From Sulfurospirillum diekertiae (GTDB lineage Bacteria; Campylobacterota; Campylobacteria; Campylobacterales; Sulfurospirillaceae): a stretch of 64,000 nt of DNA. The stretch spans positions 2,678,207-2,742,206 of the forward strand of contig NZ_CP021416.1 in NCBI RefSeq assembly GCF_002162315.1, given 5' to 3'. Below the pieces are notes generated by a model. That model worked only from the letters and a program-made list of their open reading frames with translations. It ran no database searches and was not told where the DNA came from. Positions 6,167 through 60,619 of this stretch are shown piece by piece (position 1 is the stretch's first letter; each line of letters starts with the position of its first letter). The translations under genes were made by a program, and so were the position numbers.

Positions 6167-7801
6167 ATGTTTAAGTCCATCACCATAAAACTGCGGCTTT
6201 GGGGTATTGCAATTGTCTTTATCTCAGGCTCATTTTTATTTGCATTTTTTGCCTATACAACCATTCATGAAGTTAAAATCAATGGTAAACTTTACAATGA
6301 AATTATCCTCGCCAAAGATTTGGTTGCTGATATCCTACCACCACCTGAATATATTATTGAAACGCGTCTGGTTAGCTTAGAGATGTTACGCACCGAGAAC
6401 AGCGCTGAACTTGCCACTTTTATCGCAAAAATCAAAACATTAAAGCAAGAATACGAAGAAAGACATGCCTTTTGGGTCAAAAACCTTCACCATGAGAAAA
6501 TAAAACCGTTGATGGTTGAAAAAGCATATGCTCCAGCGATGCGCTATTTCACACTTTTGGAGACAGAGTTTATCCCTGCTGTGCAAGCAGGAGACTTCAA
6601 ACAAGCATCTCTCTTAGCCTCTGGAAAACTGAAAGATGCCTATGTAGAACATCGAAATATTGTTGATCAAATTGTTGTATTAGCCAATGAATATGCCAGT
6701 GCCAATGAAACCAATGCCAGTGATCTTTTGCGCAATGAAAGTATCATGCTTAGTTTTATATTCGCGTTTATCTTTCTTGCGACCATTACTTTAATTTATC
6801 TCTCCATTAAAGTTATTTTGCACCGTATTAAAGCCATTTCCTTCTTAGCTCAAGAGTTCCAACAAGGCAACCTTCTTTACCAAGTGACCTTAGATGGAAA
6901 CGATGAAATTTCAAATGCTACCGACAATTTTAACCATTCCATTGCCAAAATGCAGAGCATTATGCACAATGTCAAAGAGGCTTCTGAAAAAAATGCCCTC
7001 ACGGCTGCAGAGCTGAGTCAAACGTCCCATACCATTGGCATGCATATTGAAGATAATGCCAAAGAGATCAATCTCAATCAAGTAGAATTACTCAAACTTG
7101 AAGAGGTCATAGAAGCAACAACAGAGCAATCCGTCATGATGGTTCAAGAGATTGATAATGCGAACACCATGTTGCAAGAAGCAAAAACTAAAATCAGTCG
7201 CATGGAAGCGGACATCCAACAAAGTTCAGAATCCGAAAATGCCCTTGCTGGCGACTTAGAGAGGCTTTCACAAGAGACGGAACAAGTACAATCCATCTTA
7301 ACCATGATTAGCGATATTGCCGATCAAACCAATCTTTTAGCGCTCAATGCCGCCATCGAAGCGGCGCGCGCGGGTGAACATGGGCGTGGATTTGCCGTGG
7401 TAGCCGATGAAGTACGAAAACTCGCAGAACGAACCCAAAAAAGCTTACTGGAAATCAACGCGACCATTCAGGTCATCGTCCAGTCGATCAATAGCGTCAG
7501 CGAAAAGATGAGCGTCAATGCTCGTTTTATTCAAGAGAGCTCAGAATCTTCTAAAACGGTTCAAAAGGTCATTACCTTAACAGTCGATACGATGTCAAAA
7601 GCGAAAGCCAAAGTCGAAGTCACTGCCAATAATTCTACACAGATCAAACTTGGCATCCACAATATCTTAGCACTCTTTGAAAAGATCAATACTTCTGCTG
7701 CCTCAAATGTTGTAAGCATCGAACAGATCGCTGCAACTTCGCATGATCTTGATGCCATGAGTGAAGCACTCAACGCTCAACTCAAACAGTTTAAAGCCTA
7801 A
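6167..7801 (+). CDS. Methyl-accepting chemotaxis protein
   Basis: Inner-membrane chemoreceptor of 544 residues. Order: membrane helix about residues 10-30, a periplasmic domain of about 160 residues that looks helical (four-helix-bundle type; ligand unknown), a second membrane helix near 195-215, HAMP linker, then the cytoplasmic signalling coiled coil with the CheA/CheW-binding hairpin tip [21 protein letters not shown] use ATG 6167, preceded by AAAGGA at 6 nt; an in-frame TTG eight codons upstream has no ribosome site. It lacks a C-terminal CheR-tethering pentapeptide and ends shortly after the coiled coil, as many Campylobacterota receptors do. Confidence 0.93.
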
Positions 7802-15947: not shown

Positions 15948-17846
15948 ATGCATCTCGGATTTAAGCAAAAAATCATTGTATCAGCAGGCCTATTTTTAGG
16001 AGCATCTCTCTTTATTTTTGGAATGTTAAGTTTTATCAATCTTAAACAAGACCTACGGCAAGAGATAGAACAGACGCAATTAGCCAAAGCACATGCGTTA
16101 AAACTGGAGATTGATTCGTGGTTTGATGCTCAAAAACTCGTCCTAGAGACAACCGCGGAAGACATTGCCCACTTGCCAGAATTTACAGATGTTACGATGA
16201 AACCTTATCTCCAAACAGCGTTTAAAAAGACTAAAGCTGCCGTAGCATACATGGGTGTAGAAGAGAGTGGTTTGATGATCTACAGTGACCAAACGAAACA
16301 AAAAGAGGGGTACGACCCTAGAAAACGACCGTGGTACATCAAGGCAAAAGCGGAAGGAAAATCTGTCGTCACCGATGTTTACACCGATGCCACCACAGGA
16401 CAACCCACCATTTCTATCGCCACGCCTGTATTTGTGAATGGTGTATTCACAGGTGTTGTTTCCAATGATGTTTATTTAACCCAAGTGATTGAGAAAATTA
16501 ATGCAAAAAAATTTGAAGGTGGTTATGCCTTTGCAACCGATGCTATGGGGAAAAGAAATGTTCATCCTGATCCAAAATTAATTGGGAAAGTGCTGTATGA
16601 CGCCAATGAGTCGCTTAAGCATCTTGAGCTTCTTGTCAAAAATAACCCTGAAGGCATTTATGACTATCAAGCAAGCGACGGAAAAGATAAAGTATTAGTT
16701 TTCAATAAGCTAGAAAATAGCTGGATTATTTTTGTGACCATAGACAAAGACGTTGCTTTCAAAGCTATCGATCACATGTTCATCACGTTAACTATCTCTG
16801 GAAATATCCTGCTTGGTCTTTCACTGATTCTGTTGTGGTTCATTCTCAATGCGCAGTTTAAGCCTCTGGAGAGACTCAATGATGTCATCAAAAACCTTTC
16901 TAGCAATGATGGTGATTTGACACAACGCCTTACGATACATTCAAGAGATGAGTTAGGCAAGATGAGTCAAAACATCAATCTCTTCATCGATAAAATTCAT
17001 ACCATCATTACAACGGCAAAAACAAACAGTGCGGAAAATGCTTCCGTGGCACATGAACTCTCTATCTCTGCGATTGATGTGGGTAAACGTGCTGAAGAAG
17101 AGGCGCTTATCGTGACTAAAACCACCACAGAAGCGACTTCATTAAAAGCCTATTTGAGAGAATCTAGGCATAGTGCAGAAAGCTCTAAAAATGAATTACA
17201 TGAGGTCACACAAAGCCTTAAAAGAGTCGAAGAAAATGTCTCTAACCTCTCAAGTCTTCTTCAAAATACCGCCCACAACGAAATCGAACTTGCGAACAAA
17301 CTCACTCTTGTGAGTGATAATACCAATGAAGTGAAAAACGTCCTTAATGTCATCAATGACATCGCCGATCAAACCAATCTCCTCGCACTCAATGCCGCCA
17401 TTGAAGCAGCAAGGGCAGGAGAACATGGAAGAGGATTTGCAGTCGTTGCGGATGAAGTACGCAAACTAGCTGAGCGTACGCAAAAATCCTTGGTCGAGAT
17501 CAATGCGACCATCAATGTTGTCACACAATCCATCAATGGTGTCAGTGTTGAGATGAATACCAACTCTGAAAATATCACTAAAATCTCTGGCATTTCCATC
17601 AATGTCCAGTCCAATGTTTCAGAAGTGGCAACCGTTCTCTCACGTACCATCACCAACACGCAAAAAACCGTTCAAGACTATATCGATACATCCAATCAGA
17701 TTGATGCCATTACCAAAGATATCGAAGCAATTAGTACATTGACCCATACCAATACACGTAGTGTCGAAGAGATCGCGGGAGCGAGTGAGCACCTTCATGA
17801 ACTCACGGAAACACTCAATCATGAATTGTCGAAGTTTAAATCGTAG
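15948..17846 (+). CDS. Methyl-accepting chemotaxis protein with dCache_1 sensor
   Basis: A 632-residue inner-membrane chemoreceptor. Membrane helix at residues about 10-30; periplasmic double-Cache domain about 35-275; second helix near 278-300; HAMP; signalling coiled coil with the [20 protein letters not shown] tip. The distal Cache pocket has [13 protein letters not shown] followed by [19 protein letters not shown] and a later Asp (SNDV). The Arg-Pro-Trp-Tyr plus Asp pattern resembles the amino-acid-binding signature of dCache_1 receptors, so an amino acid ligand is a fair guess. AAAGGAAC precedes the ATG by 4-5 nt. The tip region is nearly identical to that of the receptor at 6167. Confidence 0.93.
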
Positions 17847-37582: not shown

Positions 37583-37645
37583 GTCAAATCCTTTAAAATA
37601 AAGAAGAATTATACCTCATCTTGTAACTGACCTTATACACTTAGT

Positions 37646-37728
37646 AAAAGTACCAAAGGTGCGTGGGCATTCCGCCGAGGAAAACTCAGTGTTAACGTAG
37701 TGTTTAGAGCTTTGCTTTAAACACGTGT
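37646..37728 (+). repeat. 83-nt GTAG-hairpin repeat, copy A
   Basis: First of two copies (other: 60513-60595, minus). A small 5' hairpin (GTACC/GGTGC) is followed by a nearly invariant core containing GGGCATTCCGCCGAGGAAAA and CAGTGTTAACGTAG, then the hairpin TGTTTAGAGC-TTT-GCTTTAAACA. The arms differ from copy B but keep pairing, so the fold is conserved. GTAG at the foot of a hairpin recalls REP elements tied to RAYT transposases. It lies between divergently read genes, upstream of the nitroreductase. Confidence 0.75.
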
Positions 37729-37818
37729 TCAGAATAAAAAATGGAAGTTAATTTTAAACAGTTTCATTTAATTTCAAAAAAGTTTCGTAAAATAAATAAA
37801 ACACGAAAGGGCTCTATT

Positions 37819-59116: not shown

Positions 59117-60489
59117 TGCAAAGACTCAATATTGTCATCACAGGACACGTCGATCATGGTAAGAGTACGCTCATCGGGCGTCTTCTTGCCGACACCGACT
59201 CATTGCCACAAGGAAAACTTGAGAGTGTGAAAAAGATGTGTGAAAACAATGCACGTCCCTTTGAGTATGCCTTCTTGCTCGACGCACTAGCCGATGAGCA
59301 AAAGCAAGGCATTACGATAGACAGTGCGCGCGTCTTTTTTCAAAGTAAAAAACGAGAGTACATCATCATCGACGCTCCTGGTCACATCGAATTTTTGAAA
59401 AACATGATCAGTGGAGCGTCTCGCGCGGAGGCGGCTTTACTTCTCATCGACGCTAAAGAGGGCGTGGCGGAAAACTCCAAACGTCACGGAATGCTTCTTT
59501 CCCTTTTGGGCATCAAACAAGTGGCGATTGTGGTCAATAAAATGGACTTGGTAAACTTTAGTGAAATCGCCTTTACAAAACTGAAAGTGGAGTACAGCGA
59601 ATACTTGGCGACACTTGGGATTAAAAGCGACATTTTCATCCCGATCAGTGCAAGAGAAGGTGTAAACCTCATCGAGCATGCCAAAGAGACCCCTTGGTAC
59701 AAAGGACCAACGGTTTTAGAAATTTTAGATAGTTTCAAAAGCGTGGAAGAAAAAGAGAATGATGACTTTAGAATGCCATTACAAGATGTGTACAAGTTTA
59801 CACGCGACAACGATGACCGTCGAATTTATGCGGGAACCGTCACCAGTGGCGAGCTCAATGTGGGTGATGAAGTGGTTTTTTATCCATCTTTGAAACGCTC
59901 CAAAGTCGCAAGCATCGAGAGTTTTAACACCGAAGTCAAAACGAGTGTTAAAGAAAGCGAAGCCATTGGCTTTACGCTTGAAACACAGATTTACGTGCGA
60001 AATGGCGATGTGGTAGCCCGTGCAGACCAGAGTGCGCCAAAAGTCAGTAACCGATTTGAAGCGAATCTCTTTTGGTTAGGCGCAAAACCGTTGGAACTGG
60101 ATAAACCCTACAAGATCAAGATCGGTTCGGCGCAAAGTACCATCTATCTTGAAGAGATCAAACGCGTGATCGATGGCGATACGCTAGACCATGCCGATGA
60201 ACCAAGTGTAGGTCGTCATGAAGCGGCGTGTGTCATCTTTAGAGTGCATGATCTTTTGGCAATGGAATTATTTTCCGAGAACCAAAAGTTAGGTCGTTTT
60301 GTCATCGTCGATGAATTTGACATCGCAGGTGGTGGTATCATCACTGAAGTGTTAGAGCAGTACACCACACGTCGTACAAAGTCTTTACATGTAAGCGATG
60401 TTTTGGTCGACAAAGCAAGCACCAGTGCAGAGTTTGAAGAGGAGCTTTTTGCCCTACTTCGTAAACATTTTCCACATCAGTTCCATTAA
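59116..60489 (+). CDS. cysN: Sulfate adenylyltransferase large subunit CysN
   Basis: 457-residue EF-Tu-like GTPase that drives APS synthesis. GTP motifs: G1 [10 protein letters not shown]2 region [12 protein letters not shown]3 [10 protein letters not shown]4 NKMD, G5 SAREG. Two beta-barrel domains follow. No CysC kinase domain is fused, in line with an APS-based pathway. Contains a TTACATGTAA copy read SLHVS. The 130-nt gap after it holds a hairpin and an 83-nt repeat. Confidence 0.95.
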
Positions 60490-60492
60490 GGC

Positions 60493-60509
60493 GAGTTCTT
60501 GAAGAACTC
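60493..60509 (+). other. Small hairpin after cysN
   Basis: GAGTTC-TTGAA-GAACTC, a 6-bp stem 3 nt after the cysN stop, next to the repeat copy B. Could act as a processing or weak termination site inside the operon. Confidence 0.45.
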
Positions 60510-60512
60510 TCT

Positions 60513-60595
60513 ACACGCTTTGAGGGCAAAGCTCTCAAAGCTACGTTAACACTGGGTTTTCCTCGGCGGAATGCCCGCGCACCCTTGGTGCTTTT
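60513..60595 (-). repeat. 83-nt GTAG-hairpin repeat, copy B
   Basis: Minus-strand copy of the repeat at 37646-37728, the same 83-nt length. Core differences from copy A are single transitions; the 3' hairpin arms are CTTTGAGAGC/GCCCTCAAAG instead of TGTTTAGAGC/GCTTTAAACA, keeping the pairing and the TTT loop. It lies inside the sulfur operon between cysN and hcyS, antisense to the mRNA. Confidence 0.75.
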
Positions 60596-60619
60596 AAATT
60601 TGATACACAAAGGACAACC

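What the first reader, a model, noticed from the sequence alone, without database searches (positions are those of the whole stretch)
37646..37728. REP-like 83-nt repeat, copy A, with GTAG-foot hairpin
It shares 83 nt with 60513-60595. In the core only single transitions differ, yet the 3' hairpin arms differ at several positions with compensating changes (TGTTTA/TAAACA here, CTTTGAG/CTCAAAG there) and a shared AGAGC-TTT-GC tip. GTAG at the foot of a hairpin is the mark of REP elements moved by RAYT enzymes, but the long conserved 5' region is not typical of REPs. Could be a new interspersed structured element.
Basis: partly seen in the sequence, partly recalled or inferred. Interest (0 to 1): 0.72.

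Follow-up and report, generated by a model that had tools for sequence, protein, structure and literature searches.

The report
Jumping hairpin repeats in Campylobacterota
The 83-nt repeat is one copy of an apparently undescribed family of short, tightly folded mobile DNA elements, dozens per genome in Sulfurospirillum and scattered through related bacteria, that resembles REP elements but shows no link to the REP-moving enzyme, so what moves it is unknown.

Summary
Copies A and B lie in opposite orientation. They belong to a genome-wide family: 57 covariance-model matches at E<=1 and 48 at E<=0.01 in this 2.88-Mb genome. All 24 genus genomes tested carry 8-81 copies. Relatives occur in other Campylobacterota families. 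Three helices covary strongly (333 double-change cells against 68.5 shuffled). G·T pairs far outnumber A·C, so the written strand is the one that folds.

The element is mobile. Copy A's site is empty in nine related genomes. The cysN-thiS site of copy B is empty, holds this element, or holds a second class in the other orientation. Other insertions sit in RNase P RNA and a 16S-tRNA spacer. Resident copies decay, so the fold seems needed for spreading rather than in place.

The GTAG-hairpin module is REP-like. The RAYT link is not supported: the genus Y1 gene has its own GGGGTCAG repeats, none of 59 Y1 loci has the element within 1.5 kb, and 20 of 50 element-bearing genomes show no Y1 match. 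Best reading: a non-autonomous composite REP-like element moved in trans by an unidentified enzyme.

The parts
37623..37734 (+). Copy A: whole insertion (borders good to a few nt), between a LysE-family gene (minus strand) and a nitroreductase-family gene (plus strand, start 37819)
   Evidence: Replaced by 7-8 nt in G023, G016, G006, G004, G013, G019, G008 and G009, and also empty in G020; Pfam LysE and Nitroreductase
37650..37662 (+). Helix H1, GTACC-AAA-GGTGC
   Evidence: All 5 pairs change on both sides among 80 distinct copies, 95.7% of cells paired
37664..37688 (+). Helix H2, TGGG.CA.TTCC-GCCGA-GGAA.AA.CTCA (two segments, loop usually GCCGA)
   Evidence: 7 of 9 pairs with double changes, e.g. 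UA 45 / CG 31 at columns 38-56
37685..37700 (+). Most conserved stretch CTCAGTGTTAACGTAG; GT-GTTA-AC may be a 2-bp mini-hairpin (GT/AC alternates with GC/GC)
   Evidence: Near-invariant in 75 full copies; GT..AC 51, GC..GC 17, GT..GC 6
37700..37724 (+). Helix H3, the GTAG-foot hairpin; the last G of GTAG pairs with C37724
   Evidence: All 11 pairs have double changes, 97.6% of cells paired
60492..60619 (-). Copy B: whole insertion, antisense between cysN (stop ending at 60489) and thiS (start 60620)
   Evidence: Empty in G019, G013, G008, G006, G020, G014 and G022; same element in G012, G021, G002 and G007; a class-2 element in sense in G009, G004 and G011
60517..60541 (-). Helix H3 of copy B; GTAG at 60544-60541 on the minus strand
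   Evidence: Sequence; fold
60493..60509 (-). Optional 3' hairpin H4 of copy B, GAGTTCT-TCA-AGAACTC; not evident in copy A
   Evidence: Sequence; weaker conservation at +37 to +56 across copies

Best explanation
Copy A is one copy of a non-autonomous, structure-defined mobile element of Campylobacterota. Shown here: it is a discrete insertion; its written strand folds into hairpins H1, H2 and H3 joined by a near-invariant CAG(T/C)GTTA(A/G)CGTAG linker; the fold is strongly conserved across the family while orthologous resident copies decay. Inferred: the folded single strand is what the mobilising enzyme recognises, and the GTAG-H3 module plays the part that GTAG plus palindrome plays in REPs. 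Inferred and weaker (about 0.35): the enzyme is a Y1-type HUH nuclease acting in trans on single-stranded DNA, possibly acquired and lost repeatedly, so most current populations are fossils or served by an enzyme encoded elsewhere.
For: Filled and empty sites at orthologous positions. Most clean 75-200-nt indels between three close genomes are this element or its class-2 relative. An insertion lies in the P12 loop of RNase P RNA in one order-mate and a class-2 insertion in the 16S-tRNA-Ile spacer of S. diekertiae. Covariation: 23 of 25 pairs change on both sides, score 0.563 against 0.202 shuffled, and sliding partners destroys it. Strand asymmetry G·T 97 to A·C 21, leaving out the pair where G·T is commonest and two weak H2 pairs. 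Lineage-specific copies score higher than shared ones (exact p 0.019, n=4 and 6) and shared copies have broken stems. Tandem arrays and half units. Wide but patchy distribution: 74 of 397 phylum genomes, 12 of 68 genera.
Against: No mobilising gene identified. No target-site duplication is consistent: one 10-bp case among few clean sites. No orientation bias with replication (62 to 52, p 0.40, origin assumed at coordinate 1), although Y1 elements that use the lagging-strand template often show one. No Y1 gene beside the element, and 20 of 50 element-bearing genomes show no Y1_Tnp match. Compensatory changes could partly come from template-switch correction of imperfect hairpins or from exchange between copies.
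Confidence: 0.72

Rival explanations
1. A true REP of the GTAG kind, moved by the resident RAYT-type Y1 transposase that nearly every genus genome carries.
For: GTAG at the foot of a short hairpin; dispersed intergenic copies, mostly between co-directional genes; tandem clusters; a ~258-aa Y1 gene in nearly all genus genomes, best NCBIfam match REP_Tyr_transpos though below its cut-off. GTAG repeats are reported from epsilon-Proteobacteria, Sulfurovum sp. NBC37-1 (PMC3733652).
Against: That Y1 gene is flanked by AGGGGTCAGGGCTAAACTTTT inverted repeats, the GGGGWSAS TIRYT signature (PMC3733652, PMC6006769). No element within 1.5 kb of 59 Y1 loci. Twenty of 50 element-bearing genomes without a Y1 match, five of them closed. 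The element is 3-4 times longer than a REP and has a conserved 5' half. The Y1 gene of this genome lacks its C-terminal part.
Confidence: 0.15
2. A retrotransposed or RNA-guided element (a bacterial SINE-like RNA): copied as RNA and inserted through a reverse transcriptase or other RNA-dependent enzyme.
For: Strong strand-specific fold with G-U tolerance; no replication-strand bias; no consistent target duplication; insertions in transcribed RNA genes.
Against: No reverse transcriptase association was tested; no poly-A tail or conserved promoter shown; short perfect GTAG-foot hairpins are typical of DNA REPs.
Confidence: 0.15
3. A cis-acting RNA leader or processing element kept for function where it sits.
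For: Many copies lie in sense just before start codons; the folds are stable.
Against: Both orientations occur: of 30 own copies 12 sense and 6 antisense between co-directional genes, 5 convergent, 7 divergent. Site occupancy differs even between 95%-identical genomes. Resident copies decay.
Confidence: 0.08

Closest known systems
GTAG-tagged REP elements and REPINs (REP with RAYT)
   Same: GTAG at the 5' foot of a short hairpin with a small loop; dispersed intergenic copies; tandem clusters; stem variants that stay complementary
   Different: About 105-130 nt against 20-40 nt; a conserved two-hairpin 5' half and linker; last G of the tag is paired; no RAYT linked; many element-bearing genomes with no Y1 match
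CGTC-tagged repeats (PMC3733652)
   Same: Short palindromes with no dedicated transposase found; reported from Sulfurovum sp. NBC37-1 among others
   Different: Tag, length and overall anatomy differ
TIRYT genes and their GGGGWSAS terminal repeats
   Same: Y1 gene in the same genomes, with a few dispersed solo repeats
   Different: Repeat sequence unrelated to this element
MITEs and mosaic repeats such as BOX (from general knowledge)
   Same: Non-autonomous, small, mobile, modular
   Different: No terminal inverted repeats, no consistent target duplication

Membership tests
GTAG REP | Unpaired GTAG tag at the end of a palindrome | tested here: inconclusive
   GTAG invariant in the aligned full copies, which were anchored on GTAG, but its last G pairs with C (76 of 80 GC); two copies pair the whole tag (L021, L029)
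GTAG REP | Size 20-40 bp | tested here: not met
   Conserved core about 85 nt, insertion about 105-130 nt
GTAG REP | High copy number, mostly intergenic | tested here: met
   48 matches at E<=0.01 in this genome; mostly intergenic
GTAG REP | RAYT gene flanked by the repeat | tested here: not met
   0 of 59 Y1 loci
REP moved by RAYT | Cleavage of the folded strand by cognate TnpA-REP | not testable with these tools
   Needs a biochemical assay
TIRYT (resident Y1 gene) | Y1 domain, C-terminal HTH, GGGGWSAS inverted repeats | tested here: met
   the HTH match is weak and the C-terminal part is missing in this genome
Known Rfam RNA family | Match above gathering score | tested here: not met
   No match for the window or the related elements; best hits to copy A are chance level
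MITE | Terminal inverted repeats and target-site duplication | tested here: not met
   No shared terminal repeats seen; no consistent duplication

The most novel reading that the evidence does not exclude
A phylum-specific class of modular mobile element defined by a conserved single-strand fold (interchangeable 5' modules on a GTAG-hairpin 3' module), moved by an enzyme of a kind not yet linked to short repeats, possibly through an RNA intermediate.
Probability: 0.22. Interest if true: 0.85.

Novelty: new variant of a known kind. Interest (0 to 1): 0.62.

Why it matters
It is an abundant, recently active small mobile element found across several Campylobacterota families, with a very clear covariation record for a non-coding mobile repeat. 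It separates a REP-like fold from the REP enzyme: element-bearing genomes with no Y1 match make 'what moves GTAG repeats without RAYT?' directly testable. It also supplies most of the clean small-indel differences between the close Sulfurospirillum genomes compared, and reaches RNase P RNA and a ribosomal spacer.

Tried and rejected
Rfam in gathering and E-value mode: no family. Riboswitch or leader idea from copies next to start codons: dropped because of both orientations and variable occupancy. RAYT linkage: rejected as above. An autonomous version with a gene between the 5' and 3' halves: searched in 2.8 Mb of held sequence, none found. Phage or plasmid carriage: no phage match, one partial match on a Sulfurovum plasmid, one full-model match on a viral contig, not pursued. 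Replication-strand bias: none. Target-site duplications: inconsistent. Literature searches on Sulfurospirillum and Sulfurimonas repeats found nothing describing it.

Full report
OBSERVATION. The two copies are real and are inverted relative to each other: 37645-37733 against 60508-60596, 89 nt, 84%. Core differences are four transitions; the 3' hairpin arms differ with compensation. The core pattern has no match in shuffles of the window.

FAMILY. Two patterns gave 11 and 20 matches in the whole genome, largely overlapping. An alignment of 19 copies gave three helices with 16 of 25 pairs changed on both sides and no shuffle as high. A covariance model finds 57 matches at E<=1 in this 2.88-Mb chromosome and 48 at E<=0.01. 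All 24 genus genomes carry 8-81 copies, while several order-mates and another genus of the same family carry none. Across 397 phylum genomes 74 have matches, in 12 of 68 genera and five families; copy counts there are capped by the search. One genome used, G023, has a contig of the same length as Sulfurospirillum diekertiae JPD-1, so the window is taken to be Sulfurospirillum.

FOLD. In 80 distinct copies from several families 93.6% of cells pair, 23 of 25 pairs change on both sides, and there are 333 double-change cells against 68.5 (sd 9.8) in shuffles; sliding partners by one column drops pairing to 56% or less. The alignment was fitted to the model, so these counts lean towards it, but the stems of different copies are visibly different and complementary. 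On the written strand G·T cells are 97 and A·C cells 21, after leaving out the pair where G·T is commonest and two weak H2 pairs (arithmetic mine). Cells are not independent. This says the written strand is the folded one, as RNA or single-stranded DNA. Copy A folds at z -2.5 as RNA on the written strand and -1.1 on the other; for copy B the other strand folds at least as well, so single folds do not settle the strand.

ANATOMY. Conservation runs from an optional upstream hairpin, through H1, H2, the CAG(T/C)GTTA(A/G)CGTAG linker and H3, to an optional AGAGTTCT-AGAACTCT hairpin. A second class shares the linker end and H3 but has another 5' module, TCTGCCTC..GAGGCAAGCTTTAGTGCC..TAGTGGC. Tandem arrays with full and half units occur.

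MOBILITY. Copy A's locus is empty in nine relatives, with 7-8 nt in place of about 112 in eight of them. Copy B's locus between cysN and thiS is empty in seven genomes, holds the same element in four others, and holds a class-2 element in the opposite orientation in three. Between G000, G016 and G023 (90-95% identical) most clean 75-200-nt indels are these elements. In an order-mate one copy lies in the P12 loop of RNase P RNA. In S. diekertiae a class-2 copy sits in the 16S-tRNA-Ile spacer of both operons seen, one with its 3' module deleted. Orthologous copies shared between species show broken stems; lineage-specific ones score higher (n=4 and 6, exact one-sided p 0.019), a small sample. 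An earlier test used only three of the lineage-specific copies and counted orthologues twice, and is superseded.

ENZYME. The genus Y1 gene is flanked by AGGGGTCAGGGCTAAACTTTT inverted repeats, with a few solo copies in this genome, which matches the published TIRYT signature GGGGWSAS (PMC3733652; PMC6006769). No element lies within 1.5 kb of 59 Y1 loci (the single E=0.35 match is noise). Twenty of 50 element-bearing genomes, all at least 97% complete, show no Y1 match, including closed G189, G216, G320, G341 and G374. A 181-aa Y1 protein seen in some relatives scores weakly with Pfam, so some Y1 genes could be missed.

MECHANISM. The most economical reading is a non-autonomous element whose fold is its ticket: an enzyme in trans recognises the folded strand, REP-fashion. 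Which enzyme is open. A Y1 HUH enzyme is the leading guess because of the GTAG hairpin and the lack of consistent duplications, but the missing Y1 genes and lack of replication bias weigh against it.

KNOWN WORK. GTAG repeats were reported in epsilon-Proteobacteria (Sulfurovum sp. NBC37-1) in PMC3733652; their consensus is in a figure not held here, so the H3 hairpin alone may have been listed there. The composite element was not found in the papers searched or in Rfam.

Noticed in passing
window, 22 sites, e.g. 2494, 5988, 8356, 33918, 63725: The 12-bp palindrome TTTACATGTAAA occurs 22 times in the window and 112 times in 400 kb of this genome, about 45% of those in the 9% that is intergenic; 202 of 260 ACATGT sites lie in TACATGTA. 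Unexplained.
   Followed up: partly
L097:1338-1788: RNase P RNA of an order-mate carries a copy of the element as a ~116-nt insertion in the P12 loop.
   Followed up: yes
L220 (G023), complement, both rrn copies: A class-2 element sits in the 16S-tRNA-Ile spacer; the second operon has the 3' module deleted.
   Followed up: yes
L032:1453-2142: The TIRYT gene of this genome ends at 229 aa, short of the ~258 aa of its relatives, losing the C-terminal HTH.
   Followed up: partly
L432, L434, L435: A ~181-aa Y1 protein (MGRSRYK...YIHNNPVKRGYVD) in Sulfurimonas-type genomes, weak Pfam match, no element nearby.
   Followed up: partly
window 7284-7511 and 17329-17556: Direct repeat of 228 nt at 72% identity.
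   Followed up: no
L219 and L239: Tandem arrays of class-2 elements at spacings of about 123 and 135 nt.
   Followed up: no
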